Shown piece after piece: positions 29,589 through 42,028 of a stretch of DNA of 51,761 nucleotides. The DNA comes from Leptolyngbyaceae cyanobacterium CSU_1_3 (GTDB taxonomy: Bacteria; Cyanobacteriota; Cyanobacteriia; Leptolyngbyales; Leptolyngbyaceae): contig JAAUOZ010000010.1 of assembly GCA_012034655.1 (NCBI GenBank), positions 1 through 51,761 on the forward strand. Reading direction: 5' to 3'. How positions within the stretch are numbered: position 1 is the stretch's first letter; each line of letters starts with the position of its first letter. The notes under the pieces were generated by a model, which did no database searches, was not told the origin of the DNA, and saw only the letters and a program-made list of their open reading frames with translations. The position numbers and the translations under genes were made by a program.

Positions 29589-30554
29589 TTATAAGAGTTG
29601 AGAAGTCACCAATTCTTTGAGTGTTGCCTCTACTGAGCGCGGCTGCCATCCCAGTTGTTGCTTTGCTTTGGTGGCATCTACTCGAACACAACGATCGTAG
29701 ACATAATGCACTCGTTCACGATCGAGGGGCGGCTGCCAGCCTAGCGATCGACCGACTATATCCAACAGATTGCCAACCACTCGAACTAAGGGTTTGGGTG
29801 CATTATAAGGGGCAGGAATTCCAGTTTCTCGGCTGAAAATTTCAAACATTTCGCGAGTCGATAGATCGCCCGATGAAATAATATAATAGTCACCAATGTT
29901 GCCTTTTTCGGCTGCCAAAATCATCGCTTCTGCTAGATCATCGACATGCACAACGCCCGTAATTCTTTCGCCCCCTGCCCACAGTTTTAGTCGCCCTCTC
30001 AAGAAGGTTTTGAGCACAGGCATAAAGTGCGGATCGTCGAGACCAAAAATTCCAGAAGGTAATATGCTCACAACTGGAAACCCTTGAGAGGCTGATCGAT
30101 CGACGATTTGTTGCGCCTCATATTTGGTGCGATCGTAGGCTGAAGAAAAGCTCTTTTGAGTGCGTTGAAAGGTTTCGTTAATAGTCTGTCCTTGGGTGTC
30201 GCCAAAAACACCGATCGTACTGCAATAAACCATCTTAGAAATGTTAGCAGCTTGAGCAACTTCTAAGACAGCACGGGTTCCTTGAACGTTGACTTTCTCC
30301 ATACGATCGGCATCGACTAAACCTAGTTCTACATAGGCGGCAGTGTGAAAGATGGTATCGACCCCAACCATTGCTTTTTGAAGGGCAGTGCGATCGCAAA
30401 TGTCGCCGTAGATGAGTTCGATCTGAGTCTCTGCCAATCGGGAGAAATCGCTAGATTTTCGCACCAGCCCTACAACAGAATCACCTCGCTTTTCCAGTGC
30501 TTTCACCAAATGAGATCCTGTGAAGCCGTTTGCCCCCGTGACTAATGCTTTCAT
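29589..30554 (-). CDS. NAD-dependent epimerase/dehydratase (extended SDR, HpnA/dihydroflavonol reductase-like)
   Basis: The 321-residue protein has an NAD-binding GANGFTGSHL at residues 7-16, IYGDICDRTAL near 49, HTAAYVE near 70, and the catalytic pair YDRTKYEAQ (Tyr-x3-Lys) near 139. The C-terminus (ATKAKQQLGWQPRSVEATLKE) matches sugar epimerases. It may act on a nucleotide sugar or a hopanoid-linked sugar; the substrate is not evident. It lies 16 bp downstream of the GNAT-like gene, same strand, so the two are probably co-transcribed. Rpe converges from the other side. Confidence 0.85.
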   Translation of the reverse strand: MKALVTGANGFTGSHLVKALEKRGDSVVGLVRKSSDFSRLAETQIELIYGDICDRTALQKAMVGVDTIFHTAAYVELGLVDADRMEKVNVQGTRAVLEVAQAANISKMVYCSTIGVFGDTQGQTINETFQRTQKSFSSAYDRTKYEAQQIVDRSASQGFPVVSILPSGIFGLDDPHFMPVLKTFLRGRLKLWAGGERITGVVHVDDLAEAMILAAEKGNIGDYYIISSGDLSTREMFEIFSRETGIPAPYNAPKPLVRVVGNLLDIVGRSLGWQPPLDRERVHYVYDRCVRVDATKAKQQLGWQPRSVEATLKELVTSQLL

Positions 30555-30570
30555 CTAGATTTTTCCTACT

Positions 30571-31734
30571 CTAAACTAAACTTTTTTCATACATACGATA
30601 GGTTTTATAGATTTTGCCGCCGGAGGCTTCGATCAGTTTACGAGATGGAAAATTGTCTTCATAAACCCAAGAAAGTTCGGCTCGTTTGTAGGGTTTTCCT
30701 TTTTTAACTCCACCCGTCATCCCTAAATAGATGAGGCCTAAAGGAACCATCTTACGACGAAATTCTGGTAGCGAACAAATGGCAATGACTCGCCCTTGAT
30801 CGATCTGGCGACGATACCAGAGAAACTTGAGAATTCCTAACCAATTTAGTTTACCTTTAACGTGTTTTAGGGCAATGTTGTAGTCGGGTAAGCCCATCCA
30901 AAAGCCGATCATTTCACCCTGATATTCGGCGATCGGAAACACATCTGGATCGACTAAACTCTGTAGCGATCGTGCTTCCTCTAAAAATTCTTCTTGAGTT
31001 CGCGGTGTAGAACTCCAGTTATTAGAAAATGCTTTGGTAAATAACTGATAGAGACTAATGGCATCTTTTTCAAACCCTGCTTTCGTATCTAAAGGACGAA
31101 ACTTAACACCTGATTTAATTGCAATCTGATAACCCTTTTCAAACTCTGGGGGTAATGGTTTGTCGAGCGGAAAATTGTAAGCGTAAGCATCTTTTGCTTT
31201 GTGCCAACCCTCTTGCTCGATAAAGGTTGAATAGTAAGCAGGATTGTAGGGCATCATCACCATGGGTGGTGAGTCGAAACCGTCTACCAAAAATAGGCAA
31301 TTGTTATGGGTTGAAAGGTCGATCGGCCCCCTTACTTCTGTCATTCCCTGAGCTTTTAACCACTGACACGCCTCACTGAAAAGTGCTTGAGCAACTTCAA
31401 ATTCATCCACACATTCAAAGAAGCCAAAGATGCCAATTTTTTTGCTTTCTCGTTCAATTAGACGATCGTTGACTGCCGCCACAATTCGCCCGATCGCTCC
31501 TCCATTTCTCACAGCAATAAACTGCTGAAGTCTCCCATATTGAAAAAAGGGATTGTCTACCTCAAACTTTTTGGACACATCACTCCGCAATGGAGCAACC
31601 CAATTTGGATCGTTGGCATAGACGATCGCGGGCACATCCAAAAACTGCGCCTGCTTGTCCTTATCTGTGACCGGAAGAACTTGAAAGGAACTGAGAGATA
31701 ATTGGGCAGAATCTTGATCAATAGAAGGACTCAT
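30571..31734 (-). CDS. GNAT-like N-acetyltransferase superfamily protein (YghO-like)
   Basis: The 387-residue protein has an N-terminal block FLDVPAIVYANDPNWVAPL, then GRIVAAVNDRLIE and FGFFECVDEFEVAQALFSEA, the pattern of YghO-type GNAT-like proteins; the second half has a further acyltransferase-like block (YQGEMIGFWMGLPDYN) and ends VYEDNFPSRKLIEASGGKIY. This family is often near lipid or sugar genes; the acyl donor is not known. It precedes the epimerase by 16 bp on the same strand. Conserved acetyl-CoA residues are not obvious, so catalysis is uncertain. Confidence 0.75.
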   Translation of the reverse strand: MSPSIDQDSAQLSLSSFQVLPVTDKDKQAQFLDVPAIVYANDPNWVAPLRSDVSKKFEVDNPFFQYGRLQQFIAVRNGGAIGRIVAAVNDRLIERESKKIGIFGFFECVDEFEVAQALFSEACQWLKAQGMTEVRGPIDLSTHNNCLFLVDGFDSPPMVMMPYNPAYYSTFIEQEGWHKAKDAYAYNFPLDKPLPPEFEKGYQIAIKSGVKFRPLDTKAGFEKDAISLYQLFTKAFSNNWSSTPRTQEEFLEEARSLQSLVDPDVFPIAEYQGEMIGFWMGLPDYNIALKHVKGKLNWLGILKFLWYRRQIDQGRVIAICSLPEFRRKMVPLGLIYLGMTGGVKKGKPYKRAELSWVYEDNFPSRKLIEASGGKIYKTYRMYEKSLV

Positions 31735-31799: not shown

Positions 31800-34700
31800 T
31801 TATGGCTCAACAAAAATAATGCCTGCGGCAAGTTGAGTTACCTTCAGTTCGGTGTTGCGTCGATCGCCGATCAGCTTCTGCTTGAGCTCCAATTCTCGGT
31901 TCACCTTGCGGAGTTGGCCTTCTGTGGCAGGCAGCATTCGGAGTTTGCCAGATTGTTGAAAGGCTTGAATGCGTTCTTCGAGTTGATGGCGGCGACGATC
32001 GGCGTAGCTTTGGGCACTGCGTTGTTGAACGTCACAATGGTGGTAATTCTCAGCATCAAATTCTGCTGATGCCTGGTCAAAGGCTGCTTCTAACGCATCA
32101 TCACAATCGCTATAAAGTGCCAAGACTTGATCGAGATCTTCGATCAAATTAGACGCATTTGGCTTTGCCTTCCCCCATCGGGCTGCCCCATAGACGAGAC
32201 GTTCTGATTGATCGGCAGATAATAATTTACCATCCGAATATTGAGCAGCCTTGTAAGCAAGACGGCTCTCGGAGCGCAATCCTTTAAATAACCAGCGATG
32301 AATCGCATATATATATTGCCCCGGTGCGACATCTATGTCTGACTGCTCACAGCGAATTGCCGCGATCGGGTGCAACCTCTGGGCATCATTTTCGTAGCAG
32401 TCTCTAATCCATTGAATCAAGGGATGGGTTGGGTCAAGCAGTTCGATCGATTTCTCTTTGTCTGGGCCAGGCTGGTTTCCAAGGCGCGGGTCAAACAAAC
32501 AGAGAGCGGGCGATCGGTGTAAGCGAGTTTGAGTTGCAAATCGATGTTGCCTAAGAAACGACTCTAAATCGACTTTGGCATCTTCGGTGAGCTTGATCTC
32601 AAACACGGCTTCTTGACCCTGCATGGGTTTAAGGGTGGTTCCCAAATAGTAGCGGGCAAAATAGTCTTCAACAAAGGAGCGTAGTTCTTCTGAAGTTAGC
32701 CATCGGCCCTGAGTGCGGCTTTTGGTCACGGCATGGAGAATTTGATCTGAAAAGGCCATTAAGTTGACGGCTTCTTGTTCTAGCTGTTCTTGTTTGAGGC
32801 GTTGTTTGAGGATGGCGCTAGCAGTTTCGTCGGCGCGTTTGAGTTGTTCGGCATCGGTTAATTCGGATTCAAAAAGTGTGATGAGTAGTTTTTCAGTTGT
32901 CTCTCCGAGAATATTTTCTAGATCGCCAATGCTTTCTTGAAAAACATTGATGCGTTCATATAAACGATTGAGAATCCGTTCTTCGATCGTGTCTACCAAA
33001 CTGAAATTAATAATGGAGATGCGATCGGCTTTTTGCCCTAAGCGATCGATCCGTCCGATTCGCTGCTCGACGCGCATTGGGTTCCAGGGCAGATCATAGT
33101 TAATCAAAAATCGACAAAATTGTAAGTCAATCCCTTCGCTGCCGACTTCTGAAGATAAGAGAATTGAGGTGTTGCCCTGCTTAAATTGTGCCAGCACTTC
33201 TTGTTTCTGCTCACCCATACCCCCCAAAATCAAACTGGTCTGAATTCCATCGGCTTCTAAGCGGCGTTGCAAATAGTGAAGAGTGCCGCGAAAGTAGGCA
33301 AATAAAACAAATTGCTCGTCTGAATTTTTCTTGAGTTCGCGACGTAGAAATTGAACAAGTGTTCGATATTTGGTGTCTTCAGATTCGAGTTGAGTGTAGT
33401 CAATGTTTTCTAATGGGAATGTCTCCCGATCGGGCGATCGTTCAGTTTCTGAGGGCAGGGTTGAAATACCTGATTCCCAAAATAGTTCATCTTGAAATTC
33501 ATTCAAAACTCCCTGGTCTGACCAAGCTTGCAGCGCAGCGACGAGACAGCTTGCCATTTGCCGTTGACGAGCAATCAATCGAAACAGCAGAATGCCTTGC
33601 TTGCCTTTGCTTTGTTTGCGAATGCTCTGAGTTACCGACTCATAAATTCCTTTTTCTAAGGCAGAGAAGGGAACCGCTAATGTTTGGGGAGCACGTTCAA
33701 CCCGATTGGGCAGCACATCGCGTTTACGACTGCGGGTAAGATATGGGCTGACTAATGAAGCACTTTCTAGTTTATAACCGAGTCTGACTTGCATTTCTGC
33801 ATCGATCGCGTCTGGCGTTTCTAGCGTGTGTTGAATTTGCCGCAGCACAGAATTATGTCGAAAGTAATCGGACTGAAGAGCGCGATCGAGGTCACGTTTT
33901 GCCGCCCTAAAATCGGGAGGATGGCTCCAGAGCGATCGCAGCGCCCGAATCAGCGGCGCATTTGCCTCCAACATTTGCTGAAAGATGGTCTTGTCAAAAA
34001 AGTCTTCTGGGCTAATGATTTTCAGCAGTTGGTATAGATTAGTGTCCTCAGTTTGAATCGGGGTTGCCGTCAGCAGCAATAGATGACGAGCCGCATCTCG
34101 CACCAGTTGCCCCAGTCGATGATTGGCAGTGGCTTGGTTGCGGAGATAATGCGCTTCATCAATAATCACCAAATCAAACACGCTCGACTCATCGGCAGCA
34201 GGATTGTTATTGTTATCTAATAATCTTGCCAGTTTTGCTTTGGCCCCTGACGTGGTTTCATCTTCCCAATTGGCGCTGGGGCGAAGTCCTTCTAAACTGG
34301 CAATACATACAAAGGGGTGCTGAGATTGCCTTTGCAGAACGTGCTTGACTTCTTCTAAAAGCTCTTGGGCGTTGGTGAGTTTGGCAATGATATTAAATCG
34401 CTGTTGCAGGTCATCGCGCCATTTTTCTCGCAAAATAGCAGGGCAAATGATTAATAAACGACGGGCATCAGCCCTGGCTTGCAGTTCTTTCCAGATATAG
34501 ATGGCTTCGATCGTTTTTCCCAGTCCCACTTCGTCTGCAACTAGCAATCGTCCTACTGGAGATTCTAGAAACTTCAGCACAGGTTTAAATTGGTGCGCGT
34601 AGAAGTCGGTATGGCTCGACTCCATGCTGTAGAAAATGTTGGTCAGTTGCCCTTTCATCTTCTCAAACGTGAGAATTCGGCGCAGGTCATCGGCTCCGCT

Positions 34701-34928
34701 AAATTTTGCTTGCTCTAGCAGCGCCAAAATCCCCTCTGGTTCTCCACAAAGCTCTAAAAGGTTGTAAGGCTTATAGGATTTTTCGTTTGGGCTAAATTGA
34801 ACTTGCACTAATAGTCGAGTTCCAGAGGCGCGAGTTTTTCCGGTCGTGATGCCACGATGACCTGGATTGGCTTTCACGCGCACTTCTTGACCCAAAATAG
34901 CCGGGTTCCAAGTAATGATGTCGCTCAT
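31800..34928 (-). CDS. RapA-like SNF2 helicase, partner of the Hsp70-like protein
   Basis: The 1042-residue protein starts with a small beta domain (VRVKANPGHRGITTG) like the tudor-like part of RapA. The SNF2 motifs are I at ~131 (VADEVGLGKTIEAIYIW), II VIIDEAHYLRN, III LLLTATPIQT, V SSEVGSEGIDLQFC and VI RVEQRIGRIDRLGQKAD. The last ~350 residues hold no recognised nuclease; the end is charged and helical (VQQRSAQSYADRRRHQLEER). Its start codon follows the stop of the upstream gene with no gap (34928/34929), so the two proteins are produced together. It probably translocates on double-stranded DNA or displaces RNA polymerase or other proteins. Such pairs occur in defence islands, but the match to a named system is not established here. 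Confidence 0.9.
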   Translation of the reverse strand: MSDIITWNPAILGQEVRVKANPGHRGITTGKTRASGTRLLVQVQFSPNEKSYKPYNLLELCGEPEGILALLEQAKFSGADDLRRILTFEKMKGQLTNIFYSMESSHTDFYAHQFKPVLKFLESPVGRLLVADEVGLGKTIEAIYIWKELQARADARRLLIICPAILREKWRDDLQQRFNIIAKLTNAQELLEEVKHVLQRQSQHPFVCIASLEGLRPSANWEDETTSGAKAKLARLLDNNNNPAADESSVFDLVIIDEAHYLRNQATANHRLGQLVRDAARHLLLLTATPIQTEDTNLYQLLKIISPEDFFDKTIFQQMLEANAPLIRALRSLWSHPPDFRAAKRDLDRALQSDYFRHNSVLRQIQHTLETPDAIDAEMQVRLGYKLESASLVSPYLTRSRKRDVLPNRVERAPQTLAVPFSALEKGIYESVTQSIRKQSKGKQGILLFRLIARQRQMASCLVAALQAWSDQGVLNEFQDELFWESGISTLPSETERSPDRETFPLENIDYTQLESEDTKYRTLVQFLRRELKKNSDEQFVLFAYFRGTLHYLQRRLEADGIQTSLILGGMGEQKQEVLAQFKQGNTSILLSSEVGSEGIDLQFCRFLINYDLPWNPMRVEQRIGRIDRLGQKADRISIINFSLVDTIEERILNRLYERINVFQESIGDLENILGETTEKLLITLFESELTDAEQLKRADETASAILKQRLKQEQLEQEAVNLMAFSDQILHAVTKSRTQGRWLTSEELRSFVEDYFARYYLGTTLKPMQGQEAVFEIKLTEDAKVDLESFLRQHRFATQTRLHRSPALCLFDPRLGNQPGPDKEKSIELLDPTHPLIQWIRDCYENDAQRLHPIAAIRCEQSDIDVAPGQYIYAIHRWLFKGLRSESRLAYKAAQYSDGKLLSADQSERLVYGAARWGKAKPNASNLIEDLDQVLALYSDCDDALEAAFDQASAEFDAENYHHCDVQQRSAQSYADRRRHQLEERIQAFQQSGKLRMLPATEGQLRKVNRELELKQKLIGDRRNTELKVTQLAAGIIFVEP

Positions 34929-37160
34929 TTACCACGATCCTCTCATGTCTTCATAGTTAGGTGGTTGACCAGAGTCGTCTTGCTTGAAAGTTTTGGGCTT
35001 AACCCGCTCCATTTCGCTAGGGAGCCTGAGTTCGGGTTGCTCTCCCTCTGGAATCGACAATCCATAGGCGACGGCAAATCGATGAAACTCATGCTTGCTG
35101 ATGCCATTAGTTTCTAGATCTTTGGGAGATGGCAGCGATCGCCGCGTATACTCTGGAATTCCAGCATTCTTTTGTTGAAAGTCTTTGTGAGTCGAGATGA
35201 TTGTCTGCTCATAGAAAGCAATTTGTCCGCCGCCGCCGCCGATTAGAATCTCTAAAGGTTTCTCAAAACCTGGCCACGTCAACCTGAAACCATGCTCGCC
35301 ATATTTTTGGCTCCCATTGCAAACAACATTAGCAACCAGTCTTTGAATCTCTTTTCGAGCCATACTGGTTTGCACGCGATCGAAATAACGGGTTGAGGTT
35401 CCACAGACTGTGTTTTTGATATCTGTTTCTGCAACTCCTAATTCTTGTGCTAGCCGTTGAGAAAAGGCAGTGACACCCAAAGGATTGACTTTGCCAAAGA
35501 AGAAATCGACTTTCTTCTCGCCTGCCTCATTCCAGTATCGAAACGAGCTTCCGTCTAGCGTCCCATCCCCAACATCAAAGAGAATGTAGAAGCCTTCATC
35601 GACTTCACGAGAGTTGAGTAACGACCACACCTCAGCTGCAATTTCTGGAATCGCATGGCAATCGATCGTCGTCTCTTCCAGCTTTGCTCTCAGTGGTTTG
35701 ATACGATCACTCAAATTCTCGATCGTCATCCACTCAGTCTGAGGTTCATTACTCAATAACCAGGCGAGAGAGAGAACTTTTTGAAAGCGTTGAATGGCTG
35801 GAGAGTCACAATATTCCACAGGAACGCCAACGTTTGCAGTCCATCCAATCTTCTGGTTGATAAGTCGCTCTGATTTATTTTGACGAATCCAGGCTTGAGC
35901 GCGAATAATCACCCGACTTAAATAGTAGGCACAAAGATTTTCAACGGTTTCCTCATGACTCATTCCCGATAATTTTTCGAGCTGCCAGCTTCCTAAACCT
36001 TGAGGAAGATCAAAACTTGCCAGGCGCATTTTGATAAATTCCACCGTTGTCTGAACTTGGTTTATGTAAGGTTCCCACTCGGAAGCGGTTAGCCCAGTAA
36101 TCAATGTGCCGTCGGGCAAAATTCCAATTTTTGCTGGTAATAAAGCCTCTTCCAGACGAGTCACTTCGTCAGTGAAGGTGACGATCTCCGATCGATCTGT
36201 TGCCACATCTCGAAAGCAAACTTTTGTAAAACTCGTGCCAAAATCAATTCCCAAATTCAGCACCAAATCCTCTACGTCAAATTCTTGCCCCTCCGGAGGA
36301 AAAAGAATCGGAGTCTGCTCAAGTTCGAGTTTTGGGGTAGTCGGCACGTCTACAAATTCTGGTGCTGCCAGAGTTGGAAGCATCTCGATCGTAGGCAGTC
36401 GATTTTCGATTCCCCGATCCAAAGGTTCGCTGGTTTGTCGAGCTTCGATCGCCCTCAGTCGATCTTGAAGTTGAGCGATTTGTTCCGCAAGCCCAGGAAA
36501 TGCCTGTTGCAACGCCTCCAATCCATCCAGATTGAGAGTCGCCGCTTGTAGTTGTTGACGAATTGCCTGAATTTCTTGGGATAAGTTCTCTCGGACTTGA
36601 GAGAATTGTGCTTCTAACCCTGTCTGGCTCATCGTCGCCCCAGCCTGATGCTGCTGAATCGCCGTCAGCTGTGCATTGAGTTGAGATAATCGGGTCTGCA
36701 ATTGGCCCAGATCAGTCGAAGTTGCGTTTTGCGCTTGCTGCGTGGTCGTGAAGCGTTCTTGCAGTTGAGAAAGCTGCGATCGTAGTTCACTGAAATCGCT
36801 TGCTGTCTCATTTTGACTTTGCTTAGAGGTAATGAGTTGTTCGCTGAGGTGAGTAATGCGCTCCGTTAGACTTTGAGTAGTTTGAGTAGATTGTTCTAAA
36901 ACTTGTTGGTCGAGGTTTAACAGGCGTTGATCAATCTGAGCGATCGTTCCATTAAATCTCTGTTCTGTCTGCTGCTCAAAACGTCGCCGATTGACTAAGT
37001 TTAGACACAACGAGAGAGACATCGGAGCCGCTACGTACACAACTTGTTGCGATAGGGCCGAAGCGATAGCACCCACTACCGAAGCGACAGCCGAAGTATA
37101 TTCGATAACATGTAGGAGTCGCGATTGCTGGGTTCGTCGAGCGGAAAAAAGATTGCTCAT
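34929..37160 (-). CDS. Membrane-anchored coiled-coil protein with Hsp70/actin-like ATPase domain
   Basis: Residues ~18-60 hold one or two membrane segments (SAVASVVGAIASALSQQVVY, AAPMSLSLCLNLV). Residues ~65-260 form a long Gln-rich coiled coil. A Pro/Glu linker follows. Residues ~315-640 are an actin/Hsp70 ATPase: phosphate 1 LNLGIDFGTSFTKVCF, phosphate 2 YILFDVGDGTLDGSSFRY and adenosine LIGGGGGQIAFYEQ. The C-terminus is charged and disordered. I chose the ATG at 37158-37160, which puts the membrane segments near the start; a GTG at 37214 is possible. It abuts the helicase gene with no gap. It could sense a signal at the membrane and control the helicase. Hsp70-like with SNF2 is an uncommon pair. 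Confidence 0.85.
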   Translation of the reverse strand: MSNLFSARRTQQSRLLHVIEYTSAVASVVGAIASALSQQVVYVAAPMSLSLCLNLVNRRRFEQQTEQRFNGTIAQIDQRLLNLDQQVLEQSTQTTQSLTERITHLSEQLITSKQSQNETASDFSELRSQLSQLQERFTTTQQAQNATSTDLGQLQTRLSQLNAQLTAIQQHQAGATMSQTGLEAQFSQVRENLSQEIQAIRQQLQAATLNLDGLEALQQAFPGLAEQIAQLQDRLRAIEARQTSEPLDRGIENRLPTIEMLPTLAAPEFVDVPTTPKLELEQTPILFPPEGQEFDVEDLVLNLGIDFGTSFTKVCFRDVATDRSEIVTFTDEVTRLEEALLPAKIGILPDGTLITGLTASEWEPYINQVQTTVEFIKMRLASFDLPQGLGSWQLEKLSGMSHEETVENLCAYYLSRVIIRAQAWIRQNKSERLINQKIGWTANVGVPVEYCDSPAIQRFQKVLSLAWLLSNEPQTEWMTIENLSDRIKPLRAKLEETTIDCHAIPEIAAEVWSLLNSREVDEGFYILFDVGDGTLDGSSFRYWNEAGEKKVDFFFGKVNPLGVTAFSQRLAQELGVAETDIKNTVCGTSTRYFDRVQTSMARKEIQRLVANVVCNGSQKYGEHGFRLTWPGFEKPLEILIGGGGGQIAFYEQTIISTHKDFQQKNAGIPEYTRRSLPSPKDLETNGISKHEFHRFAVAYGLSIPEGEQPELRLPSEMERVKPKTFKQDDSGQPPNYEDMRGSW

Positions 37161-37541
37161 ACGACTGACTCTTGGAGAAGTAGTTGAGTAAGGAAGTTGC
37201 TCCCATACTGTCACATCATTTTCAGAACGTCAGAACAGACTGTAAACTGGTTCATCATTTGTTACCAAAAGCACCAAAATTTTACAGAGAGAATTAAAGA
37301 GTGTCTCGCGCATCTCTCTGAAAGACGTTAGTACTACAAATATTCCGTAGCAATCAGAAAATAAGGATGGACTGGCTCTGCCCAGGGGGTGTCTGAAAAG
37401 CATCAAAAGTTTCTTCGTTCCGAAAGTCACGGGTGGGATGAAACCGCAGCAACGGAGTTTTAAAACACCTCCTAGGGGGTTCAAAAAAATGACCGCCCTC
37501 CTCTGAGAACGATCACTGATTAATCAAACTGCATGGGTAGC
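37161..37541. other. Upstream region of the Hsp70-like/helicase pair
   Basis: About 330-380 bp without a supported gene, between the stop of the oxoamine synthase gene and this operon, all on the minus strand. A frame at 37230-37484 has no features. The promoter of the pair is expected here. I see no strong repeat. Confidence 0.4.
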
Positions 37542-38819
37542 CTAAGCGCTAATCGTTGGCTGATAAACCAGATCGCGCATCTTCACCATGCCTGTCACCA
37601 GGCGATCCATTTCTTCTTTGGTGTGCAGCGCATTCACCGTGATCCGAATTCGTGGCTTGGCGATAAACCAGATTGGCGACACCCAAACCCCAAAATCGAG
37701 CAGTTCTCTGGCGTACTCTTTAGGATTGATCTCTGGAGGCAACAAAACCGGAACAACGTTAGTTTCGCCGATCGCTGCAAAGTCGTTCGCCGCCAGCCGC
37801 GATCGTAGATAGCGAGTGCTCTCCTGCAAATCTCTGACGCGATCGGGTTGTTGCTTCACAATCCGAATGCTTTCTAAGGCGGCGGCCGTGGTCGGCGCAG
37901 GGAGAGAAATCGTTCCGATCGAGGTGGGTGACACATTCAAAAGCGGAATTAGCTCCGGCGCATGGGAGCTAATCGCCGCCCCTGCGGAGGCAGCAAACTT
38001 CGAGAACGTCGTCATGATCAAGGGGTTCACTCCCCGATCGATGGCATCTTGAGGCTTGAGATTGAAGTACTCGTAAATGCCGCGACCCGTTGCACCGATC
38101 GCCCCACTGGCATGAGCTTCATCCATCAGCAGCGTACTGTCGGGGTAGGCCTCCAGCACGTCTAACATTTGCGGCAAAGGAGCAATGTCACCATCCATCG
38201 AAAAGACGGCATCTGACACCACCATAATGCGATCGCCCGGTTGGGCATAGCGCTTCAGCTTTCTCGCCATATCTTCGATGTCACAGTGGCGATAGGCTCG
38301 CACTCGCACCCGTGGACTGTGCCCAAACATCTTGCCAGAGCGCGTTCCAGCATTAGCCAACGCCGTCACGATGCAGCCGTGGTTGAGCACATCAGTGAGA
38401 ATCAGCGTTTCGCGAGTGTTCTGAAACCCAGGCACAGGAATCGCCAGGTGGCAGAAGGCATCCATCAAGGCTTGCATTGCCATCCACGCATTCAGAAACA
38501 ATTGCGTGTGGGGCAGATGCTTGAAAGCAGAAATCTCGGTTTCTAGCTGACGGTGCAAATCAATGCGACCACTGAGCACCGACGTAGAACTATTGGAGGT
38601 TCCATACTGCAAGATTGAATCGATCGCCGCCTGCTTGACCGATGCTTCCTGGGTCAGCCCCAACACATCATTCGTACAAAAGGTGAGAACGGTACGACGT
38701 TTGCCCGTTTCAGCCTCTTCAATTTCGACAAAGTTTCCCTGGCGGCCGTGGCAGATATACTCGTCGGGGTCTAAACCGCTTTCGTACCAGCGCCGCACAT
38801 ACTCCTTGACAACTTGCAC
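37542..38819 (-). CDS. Alpha-oxoamine synthase (BioF-like, PLP-dependent)
   Basis: The 425-residue protein has NDVLGLTQEASVKQAAIDS, YGTSNSSTSVLSGRIDLHRQ, DVLNHGCIVTALANAG, the PLP motif TLLMDEAHASGAIGATGRG and the Schiff-base lysine in TTFSKFAASAGA. These are the blocks of BioF/KBL/SPT enzymes, which condense an amino acid with an acyl-CoA or acyl-ACP. It could be the 7-keto-8-aminopelargonate synthase of biotin synthesis or a sphingolipid-type enzyme; nothing in the window decides. The GTG start is preceded by GAGGAGC. No other biotin genes are near. Confidence 0.85.
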   Translation of the reverse strand: MQVVKEYVRRWYESGLDPDEYICHGRQGNFVEIEEAETGKRRTVLTFCTNDVLGLTQEASVKQAAIDSILQYGTSNSSTSVLSGRIDLHRQLETEISAFKHLPHTQLFLNAWMAMQALMDAFCHLAIPVPGFQNTRETLILTDVLNHGCIVTALANAGTRSGKMFGHSPRVRVRAYRHCDIEDMARKLKRYAQPGDRIMVVSDAVFSMDGDIAPLPQMLDVLEAYPDSTLLMDEAHASGAIGATGRGIYEYFNLKPQDAIDRGVNPLIMTTFSKFAASAGAAISSHAPELIPLLNVSPTSIGTISLPAPTTAAALESIRIVKQQPDRVRDLQESTRYLRSRLAANDFAAIGETNVVPVLLPPEINPKEYARELLDFGVWVSPIWFIAKPRIRITVNALHTKEEMDRLVTGMVKMRDLVYQPTISA

Positions 38820-40927: not shown

Positions 40928-42028
40928 TTATGGTGCTGAAACCTCTGGATAAACCGATTTTGGGGTCTGCTGGGAAGGGTTTTGCGATCGCACAAAGGTT
41001 TCATACTGCCGCAAAATTAGCCGTTGGACGGCGATAATGGCTGGGTTGACCTCGACATAGCGACGCTGCGGATCTTTGAGGTAGTTTTCTTGTTCGCTTT
41101 CGATCATTTCCATGTCCTGCCTCAGAAAGCGCAGAAACAGCAGGTGAATAATTACCGGCTGCAAAACTGGACGCAAGAGATTAACCAGGGGGCGAGGCAG
41201 CCGTATTTTGAGAAACATAAAAGTAAACGATCGACTGGCGTGGGGGGCGATCGGCAGCCGCATCAGATACAGTGACGAAATCCCTTGCAGGTTATTCACA
41301 TAGTTGGGGTAGCGATAATCGACGGAGATGGTTTGAGTCGTGACACGATCGCCGACTTCGCTTAGCCCCAGAAATTTTGTAATCGGGCCCTGATAAGAAA
41401 CCTGGTAGTCTGCTGTCACTGAGTCTTCGGTTTCGCGCAGTTTTAGCAGCACGGGGTCAAACCAGCCTTGCAAATTTTTGTGTAGATAGCCATGAAACAC
41501 ATCCATTGTGTTTTCGTTGCAGATTGAGAAGTGTGCGTTGAAGTGAGCACCTACTGGAATCAGCAACCAGTCTGGGTCGTCGTATTCTGGCATAGTGGGC
41601 AACGGTTGGGTCGCTGCCAGGGTGGGGTCGCCCGGAAACAACCAGATCAGTCCATATTGTTCTTGCACCGGAAAGCTGCGAAGCTGGGCACAGGGTAGCT
41701 TTTGACTTGAGTTCCAGTAAGGGATGCCAATACATTCGCCTTTACTATTAAACTCCCAGCCGTGGTAGCCACAGACGATCGTGTCTCCCTTGACTTGCCC
41801 TTTGTCGATCGCGACACCCTTATGAGGACAGACATTCTCGACGGCATGGACTTGGTTTTGGCTATCGCGGTAGAGGGCGATCGCTTGTTGCCAGATCATG
41901 ACAGACAAAATTTTTTTGGGTTTAAGGTCTTTGGCCCATGCAACTGCATACCAGTGATTGCCATTGATGCCGACTTCCCGCACATGATTGCGAACTGTCT
42001 GACCTGTTAAAGTCGTTGCCAGTTCCAT
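40928..42028 (-). CDS. Rieske [2Fe-2S] mononuclear-iron oxygenase, PAO-like
   Basis: The 366-residue protein has the Rieske motif CPHKG ... CGYHGWEF (C-x-H and C-x2-H) at ~68-90 and the mononuclear iron motif in NENTMDVFHGYLH (Asp, then two His) at ~176-188. Near the C-terminus a hydrophobic stretch (PLVNLLRPVLQPVIIHLLFL) could sit in the membrane, as in pheophorbide a oxygenase and related enzymes. It oxygenates an aromatic or tetrapyrrole-like substrate with electrons from ferredoxin; the substrate is not known. It starts at ATG 42028. Confidence 0.9.
   Translation of the reverse strand: MELATTLTGQTVRNHVREVGINGNHWYAVAWAKDLKPKKILSVMIWQQAIALYRDSQNQVHAVENVCPHKGVAIDKGQVKGDTIVCGYHGWEFNSKGECIGIPYWNSSQKLPCAQLRSFPVQEQYGLIWLFPGDPTLAATQPLPTMPEYDDPDWLLIPVGAHFNAHFSICNENTMDVFHGYLHKNLQGWFDPVLLKLRETEDSVTADYQVSYQGPITKFLGLSEVGDRVTTQTISVDYRYPNYVNNLQGISSLYLMRLPIAPHASRSFTFMFLKIRLPRPLVNLLRPVLQPVIIHLLFLRFLRQDMEMIESEQENYLKDPQRRYVEVNPAIIAVQRLILRQYETFVRSQNPSQQTPKSVYPEVSAP

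What the first reader, a model, noticed from the sequence alone, without database searches (positions are those of the whole stretch)
31800..37214. Abutting Hsp70/actin-like membrane ATPase and RapA-like SNF2 helicase: candidate undescribed two-gene system
The stop of the membrane-anchored, coiled-coil, actin-like ATPase gene and the start of the SNF2 helicase are adjacent with no base between (34929/34928), implying coupled production. One protein has membrane segments, about 200 residues of coiled coil and a complete actin/Hsp70 ATP-binding set; the other has all SNF2 motifs and a tudor-like N-domain but no nuclease or methylase. SNF2 helicases occur in several defence systems (DISARM, Dpd, Dnd-like), always with other partners; an Hsp70-like membrane partner alone does not match one I know. 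A sensor at the membrane that licenses a DNA translocase is one reading.
Basis: partly seen in the sequence, partly recalled or inferred. Interest (0 to 1): 0.82.

Follow-up and report, generated by a model that had tools for sequence, protein, structure and literature searches.

The report
Hsp70-like ATPase paired with DNA helicase
Two adjacent cyanobacterial genes, an ATPase built like the engine of the chaperone Hsp70 and a DNA-translocase-type helicase, turn out to be inseparable neighbours across at least five bacterial phyla, often inside anti-virus gene islands, and no named system that I could find describes this pair.

Summary
In detail: two abutting, co-directional genes (TAA|ATG) at 31800-37214. 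The ATPase has the Hsp70 nucleotide-binding fold and catalytic residues; the helicase has full RapA-like SNF2 architecture and no nuclease. The pair is a real module: a scan of about 85,000 genomes with the ATPase alone gave 47 loci in five phyla, all 47 with the helicase family next door; the reverse holds in 22 of 22 cyanobacterial genomes. The helicases form one clade apart from RapA and DISARM DrmD, although PADLOC labels them DrmD. The window's copy sits in a bioF-GNAT spacer that is empty in relatives. Other copies often lie in defence islands (DISARM, Ssp, PglZ, Hma, Mokosh, Hachiman). The membrane/coiled-coil part is a cyanobacterial add-on that comes with reversed gene order, so 'membrane sensor' is not the core. 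Two lineages keep an intact ATPase with a helicase that has lost its motor, and a sister helicase clade uses an Hsp90-type ATPase. Best reading: a two-component defence module in which an Hsp70-type switch controls a DNA-binding SNF2 scaffold. The defence role is untested.

The parts
34929..37214 (-). Hsp70-NBD-type ATPase gene (761 aa from GTG 37214; more likely start ATG at 37160, 743 aa)
   Evidence: (homologues begin at residue 19)
36984..37115 (-). N-terminal hydrophobic hairpin (residues 34-77), borderline membrane segment; a module shared with other cyanobacterial proteins
   Evidence: hydropathy maximum 1.59
36432..36977 (-). Coiled coil (residues about 80-261)
34995..36272 (-). Hsp70 nucleotide-binding domain (residues 315-740, mostly pLDDT over 90); no substrate-binding domain
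36234..36251 (-). Phosphate-1 motif GIDFGT (residues 322-327), invariant except I323 (90% or more)
36030..36032 (-). K395, invariant, aligned with the Lys of Hsp70 'KRLIG' (catalytic Lys, K71 in Hsc70)
35643..35645 (-). E524, invariant, aligned with the Glu of Hsp70 'NEPTAAA'
35559..35576 (-). Phosphate-2 motif DVGDGT (residues 547-552)
35229..35240 (-). Adenosine motif GGGG (residues 659-662)
31800..34928 (-). SNF2/RapA-like helicase gene, 1042 aa; starts immediately after the ATPase stop codon
34749..34889 (-). N-terminal beta-rich (tudor-like) domain, residues 14-60
34512..34535 (-). Helicase motif I, DEVGLGKT (132-139)
34149..34160 (-). Helicase motif II, DEAH (257-260)
33042..33140 (-). 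Helicase motifs V-VI, SEGIDLQ...QRIGRIDR (597-629)
32151..32726 (-). C-terminal alpha+beta domain (735-926), retained in the motor-less partners of L108 and L117
37488..37517 (-). Terminator-like hairpin after bioF, suggesting that the pair has its own transcription unit (pattern match only)
37542..38819 (-). Flank: bioF/KBL-type PLP acyltransferase; in relatives directly next to the GNAT gene (empty site)
30571..31734 (-). Flank: GNAT-like protein, the other side of the empty site

Best explanation
A mobile two-gene module, most likely anti-phage or anti-mobile-element defence. The helicase is a RapA-architecture SNF2 DNA translocase without nuclease. The partner is a hydrolysis-competent Hsp70-type ATPase domain without a substrate-binding domain. 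SHOWN by sequence: obligate linkage, shared phylogeny, intact catalytic residues in both (except motor-less helicases in two lineages), mobility, and frequent placement in defence islands. INFERRED: the two form a complex in which the Hsp70-type domain is an ATP/ADP conformational switch docking on the helicase's N-terminal and C-terminal alpha+beta domains. Sensing of foreign DNA or an infection product flips the switch and lets the SNF2 part load on and remodel the target DNA, blocking replication or transcription without cutting, or exposing it to nucleases of neighbouring systems. In the cyanobacterial variant a coiled-coil/hydrophobic extension adds oligomerisation or localisation.
For: Linkage 47/47 from an ATPase-only scan and 22/22 from the helicase side in 291 cyanobacterial genomes. 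Genes within about 50 bp of each other or overlapping in most loci; distance matrices correlate at r=0.949, 0 of 2000 permutations as high. Single helicase clade. Hsp70 catalytic Lys/Glu/Asp and all SNF2 motifs conserved. Folds: DnaK at E 1e-12, RapA at E 6e-33. Defence neighbours: inside a DISARM operon (L081) and next to Ssp, Mokosh, Hma, PDC-S68, PglZ, type IV REase and Hachiman genes; 91 vs 15 PADLOC families at E<=1e-40 in 99 neighbour vs 99 control ORFs. Empty site. Conjugative plasmids. Motor-less partners that keep N- and C-domains.
Against: No phage-challenge data. The window copy and several others (L100, L108, L117, L127) have no recognised defence gene nearby among those examined. 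Defence islands also carry non-defence cargo. The complex itself was not predicted (no tool for it). The motor-less lineages argue that translocation is not always needed, against a pure motor-licensing model.
Confidence: 0.5

Rival explanations
1. Transcription or DNA-maintenance pair: a RapA-like RNA-polymerase recycler whose Hsp70-like partner helps dissociate stalled complexes under stress; defence-island location is incidental.
For: RapA is the best solved structural match over the full length of the helicase; an Hsp70-type NBD fits a disassembly role.
Against: Patchy distribution (22 of 291 cyanobacterial genomes), mobility and empty site, conjugative-plasmid copies, defence-gene enrichment, clade distinct from E. 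coli RapA.
Confidence: 0.15
2. It is a variant of DISARM: the helicase is a DrmD and the pair is a DISARM part that became separated.
For: PADLOC DrmD model PDLC02623 scores 1004 bits; the pair lies inside a DISARM operon in L081 and near DrmD/DrmMI homologues in L130.
Against: NCBIfam DISARM_DrmD is below its cut-off, 467 vs 610 bits; the tree separates true DrmD (support 100, branch 1.46) from the pair clade, and L081 carries a true DrmD as well as the pair; no DISARM genes flank the window and DrmA is absent from the genome apart from a 25-bit match in a YprA/MrfA-like protein.
Confidence: 0.07
3. Membrane-anchored sensor that licenses a DNA translocase, as the general mechanism.
For: N-terminal hydrophobic hairpin plus about 180-residue coiled coil in the window protein; a rough analogy to Zorya's membrane part plus SNF2 helicase.
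Against: 28 of 45 measured pairs have a short N-terminus (median 59 residues before the ATPase domain) and mostly no hydrophobic segment; the extension goes with reversed gene order in one derived cyanobacterial clade; the N-terminal module is shared with unrelated cyanobacterial proteins; hydropathy is borderline.
Confidence: 0.1
4. Accessory to other systems rather than a system in itself: the pair only boosts or regulates neighbouring restriction-like systems (DISARM, Ssp, BREX-like, Hma).
For: Tight co-operonic placement in several large defence operons.
Against: Many solitary copies, the window's included; no other neighbour family is conserved: the next most common occurs in 6 of 53 loci.
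Confidence: 0.18

Closest known systems
DISARM DrmD (class 1 DISARM SNF2 helicase)
   Same: SNF2 helicase of similar length and architecture; PADLOC gives the pair's helicase the DrmD name.
   Different: Separate clade, obligate Hsp70-like partner, no DrmA/B/C/MI required; DISARM loci can carry both.
RapA (E. coli RNA polymerase recycling SNF2 ATPase)
   Same: Best solved structural match along the full length.
   Different: Distinct clade, mobile, always paired with an Hsp70-type ATPase; RapA has no such partner gene beside it in E. coli.
BrxHII and helicases of BREX-related systems (PMC12839542)
   Same: Described there as TUDOR + Swi2/Snf2 + inactive REase-like + alpha/beta, parallel to RapA.
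   Different: Those act with methylase/PglZ-type partners; no Hsp70 or actin-like partner is mentioned in that paper.
Hsp70/DnaK nucleotide-binding domain
   Same: Fold and catalytic residues.
   Different: No substrate-binding domain, about 12% identity in the structural match, single sequences do not match Pfam HSP70, encoded only beside the helicase.
CoCoNuT CnuD Hsp70-like proteins (PMC11090510)
   Same: Hsp70-like NBD in a defence system.
   Different: CnuD is described as degenerate in its ATP site and linked to McrBC; here the site is intact and the partner is an SNF2 helicase.
Zorya (ZorA coiled coil/membrane + ZorD SNF2 helicase)
   Same: Coiled-coil, possibly membrane-bound protein plus SNF2 helicase, in the cyanobacterial variant only.
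   Different: No MotAB-type ZorA/ZorB homology; matches of a few members to ZorA models are weak (best E 6.6e-6) and most likely coiled coil.
Helicase + GHKL (Hsp90/sacsin-like) ATPase pairs (Ensifer plasmid L147; viral contigs L198, L202, L203)
   Same: Sister helicase family, also directly followed by an ATPase of chaperone fold.
   Different: The partner is GHKL rather than Hsp70 type.

Membership tests
DISARM | Core genes DrmA, DrmB, DrmC and a methylase (DrmMI/MII) in the locus | tested here: not met
   None of the ten flanking or member proteins matched DrmA/DrmMI over their length apart from the helicase's SNF2 match; the own genome has only a 25-bit DrmA match in a single YprA/MrfA-like protein
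DISARM | Helicase falls in the DrmD family | tested here: not met
   NCBIfam DrmD 467 vs cut-off 610 bits; separate clade. PADLOC PDLC02623 matches at 1004 bits, probably because such pairs sit near DISARM
RapA | Orthologue of E. coli RapA | tested here: not met
   Architecture similar, but separate clade in the tree and 157 bits vs cut-off 576 for NF003426
RapA | Binds RNA polymerase | not testable with these tools
   No interaction data
Hsp70 (DnaK family) | NBD fold with phosphate-1/2 and adenosine motifs and catalytic Lys/Glu/Asp | tested here: met
Hsp70 (DnaK family) | Substrate-binding domain and membership by Pfam HSP70 cut-off | tested here: not met
   The ATPase domain ends near residue 740 of 761; no HSP70 Pfam hit listed for any of 42 members; the own-genome HSP70 search does not list this gene
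PADLOC PDC-M61 | PDC-M61B profile at family level | tested here: not met
   28.9 bits for the window protein, 12 of 42 members at best E 3.5e-9; in cyanobacteria the same profile matches other ~530-aa proteins weakly, so superfamily-level only
Zorya | MotA/MotB-like ZorA and ZorB | tested here: not met
   No such family in the flanks; weak coiled-coil-type match only
Anti-phage defence system (general) | Protects cells from phage | not testable with these tools
   Only genomic association
Anti-phage defence system (general) | Patchy, mobile, enriched in defence islands | tested here: met
   22 of 291 genomes; empty site; 91 vs 15 PADLOC families

The most novel reading that the evidence does not exclude
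A previously unnamed class of bacterial immune system whose central switch is an Hsp70-type ATPase and whose SNF2 helicase is a DNA-reading scaffold with a dispensable motor; a sister class uses an Hsp90-type (GHKL) ATPase in the same slot.
Probability: 0.3. Interest if true: 0.86.

Novelty: new variant of a known kind. Interest (0 to 1): 0.72.

Why it matters
SNF2 helicases recur across many bacterial defence systems, but what controls them is poorly understood. A strictly conserved Hsp70-type partner over several phyla would give a simple two-protein case in which that control can be tested, would show an Hsp70 engine used as a regulatory switch on a DNA-acting enzyme (loosely parallel to actin-fold subunits of eukaryotic SWI/SNF remodellers, an analogy from general knowledge and not tested), and would correct the DrmD label that PADLOC gives this helicase family.

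Tried and rejected
RapA orthologue: rejected by the tree and obligate pairing. DISARM membership: rejected. PDC-M61 candidate system: only a superfamily-level match. Membrane anchor as a universal feature: rejected. A third conserved gene: none found; the next most common neighbour family is PDC-S68 in 6 of 53 loci. The long ATPase in L139 looked like a fusion but is a run of N. A viral-contig scan with the ATPase profile gave nothing; a helicase scan gave one ATPase-helicase pair (L199) and several helicase-GHKL pairs. Insertion-site duplication: not resolved, because the intergenic spacer is too diverged. Several wider bioF-GNAT intervals in relatives hold the same other genes in similar order, so they are older neighbours rather than evidence of an integration hotspot. 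Literature searches for an SNF2 + Hsp70 defence pair found no description; subscription papers are mostly not held.
Full report
OBSERVATION. On the minus strand, 34929-37214 encodes a 761-residue protein and 31800-34928 a 1042-residue protein; the first gene's TAA is followed directly by the second's ATG. Close homologues of the first protein begin at its residue 19, so its true start is probably the ATG at 37160.

THE TWO PROTEINS. No single ATPase sequence of the family matches Pfam HSP70, but the family profile matches Hsp70 chains in the PDB (E 2e-7). AlphaFold gives residues 315-740 mostly at pLDDT above 90, and Foldseek returns DnaK as best match (E 1e-12, probability 1.00). Across 42 members from several phyla the phosphate-1 motif, K395, E524, the DxGxG motif and the GGG adenosine motif are invariant. 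In the profile alignment K395 and E524 fall on the catalytic Lys ('KRLIG') and on the Glu of 'NEPTAAA' of Hsp70 (the catalytic role of these residues in Hsp70 is established knowledge). There is no substrate-binding domain. The helicase keeps all SNF2 motifs in 40 members, and its model matches RapA from end to end (E 6e-33), including the beta-rich N-domain. No nuclease or methylase domain is found.

THE PAIR IS REAL. A scan of about 85,000 species genomes with the ATPase alignment alone gave 47 loci with identities down to 21%. In all 47 the neighbouring gene matches the helicase profile. In 291 cyanobacterial genomes, all 22 that carry a helicase of about 47% or more identity with substantial coverage also carry the ATPase beside it; below that, intact helicase hits drop to about 31% over the motor. 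Fragments of either gene occur in a few genomes (G010, G070, G240). Two alphaproteobacterial plasmids that a single-sequence ATPase search missed also have the ATPase directly downstream. Distance matrices of the two proteins correlate at r=0.949 (36 loci, 0 of 2000 permutations as high). Clustering of all neighbours shows no third conserved family: the next is found in 6 of 53 loci.

NOT RapA, NOT DISARM. PADLOC names the helicase DrmD (1004 bits), but NCBIfam's DrmD model is well below cut-off (467 vs 610). A tree puts all 38 pair helicases on one side of a branch (SH-aLRT 85; 97 without the long L144 row), apart from annotated DISARM DrmD proteins (support 100, branch 1.46) and E. coli RapA (quick method, long outgroup branches, so deep joins are unsure). 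In L081 a true DrmD and the pair lie side by side in one operon. The own genome has no DISARM core.

TWO ARCHITECTURES. In 28 of 45 measurable pairs the helicase comes first and the ATPase is short (median 59 residues before its GIDFG motif). In 17 pairs, all cyanobacterial, the ATPase comes first and has a long N-terminal extension (median 321 residues). Those sampled in the tree form one clade (support 99). The extension is therefore an add-on. Its first about 60 residues resemble the N-termini of many other cyanobacterial coiled-coil proteins, and its hydropathy is borderline (maximum 1.59). This is why the membrane-sensor reading is not the core mechanism.

NATURAL EXPERIMENTS. In ESFC-1 (L108) and Spirulina CCY15215 (L117) the ATPase is intact, but its partner is a 457-478-residue remnant. 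It keeps helicase residues about 1-100, a degenerate piece of the first RecA-like domain, and the C-terminal alpha+beta domain (about 735-926), and lacks the Walker A motif, the DEAH box and the second RecA-like domain. These genomes have no full-length pair helicase elsewhere. A sister helicase family (Ensifer plasmid L147; viral contigs L198, L202, L203) is followed by a GHKL (Hsp90/sacsin-like) ATPase instead (the GHKL naming rests on my reading of the motifs). One viral contig (L199) holds an ATPase-helicase pair. I infer that the slot next to this helicase is for a chaperone-type nucleotide clamp, and that the N- and C-terminal helicase domains are the likely docking sites.

MOBILITY AND CONTEXT. 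In the window the pair lies between bioF and a GNAT gene. In G296, G095 and G015 the two flanks are adjacent, with a short spacer and no pair, and G095 carries its own pair elsewhere. Nearly identical helicases occur in Rhizobiales with different neighbours (L115, L119). Pairs lie on conjugative plasmids. Neighbours include DISARM (L081; DrmD/DrmMI homologues in L130), SspG-SspH-SspA (L082), Mokosh (L083), an Hma-like methylase with DpdF-like helicase (L080), PDC-S68 with DpdF/GajB-like helicases (L115), HmaC (L122), PglZ (L134, L144), a type IV restriction enzyme (L141), Dsr1 (L137) and Hachiman (L146). At E<=1e-40, 99 neighbour ORFs matched 91 PADLOC families, against 15 for 99 control ORFs from arbitrary stretches of genomes that carry the pair. 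Families overlap, so this is an indication of enrichment, not a test. The window's own flanks hold no defence gene among those scanned.

MECHANISM. Best reading: a two-component, nuclease-free defence module in which an Hsp70-type ATP/ADP switch and an SNF2 DNA-binding translocase form a complex that acts on foreign DNA, either alone or by preparing it for neighbouring nucleases. Linkage, shared phylogeny, catalytic integrity, mobility and island association are shown. Complex formation, the trigger and the antiviral effect are inferred. The main rivals are an accessory role to other systems and a RapA-like transcription role.

NOVELTY. Searches of the held literature found no description of an SNF2 + Hsp70-type pair; BREX-related and phosphorothioation surveys that treat SNF2 helicases in detail mention no Hsp70-like partner. 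The nearest published use of Hsp70-like domains in defence, CoCoNuT CnuD, is described as degenerate in its ATP site. Most subscription papers are not held, so a prior description cannot be excluded.

Noticed in passing
L108:8593-9966 and L117:3362-4798: Motor-less relatives of the helicase (N-terminal and C-terminal domains kept, Walker A/DEAH/second RecA domain lost) next to an intact Hsp70-like ATPase.
   Followed up: partly
L147:8809-15129; L198, L202, L203: A sister family of the helicase is followed directly by a large GHKL (Hsp90/sacsin-like) ATPase, in L147 also by a TM0106-type nuclease gene: possibly a second undescribed pair.
   Followed up: partly
window residues 29-80 of the ATPase (about 36975-37130); many cyanobacterial genomes, e.g. 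L031, L034, L036: A cyanobacterial N-terminal module (about 50 residues, 'E..S..ASVVGAIAS...YA.APLSLSL.LNL.NR..FE' plus coiled coil) is joined to many different proteins.
   Followed up: partly
L115, L122, L130, L133, L143: The PADLOC candidate PDC-S68 (RecD-like, about 1250 aa) is the commonest extra neighbour of the pair outside cyanobacteria.
   Followed up: no
L115:1282-6393, L129:5160-10250: A 1700-residue protein that matches DpdF-type helicase models in its N-terminal part and GajB/UvrD models in its C-terminal part sits beside the pair in Rhizobiales and a cyanobacterium.
   Followed up: no
L103:8123-11332: In Phormidesmis priestleyi the ATPase's coiled coil has grown by internal repeats (632 residues before the ATPase domain).
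   Followed up: no
L146 (Aminobacter plasmid pAA03): Compact defence island on a conjugative plasmid: RecB-like nuclease, restriction endonucleases, the pair, Hachiman HamA with its helicase, AbiEii.
   Followed up: no
window 40928-42028 and 29589-30554: Rieske oxygenase and epimerase-type genes resembling sterol demethylase SdmA and SdmB/HpnA, both below curated cut-offs.
   Followed up: no
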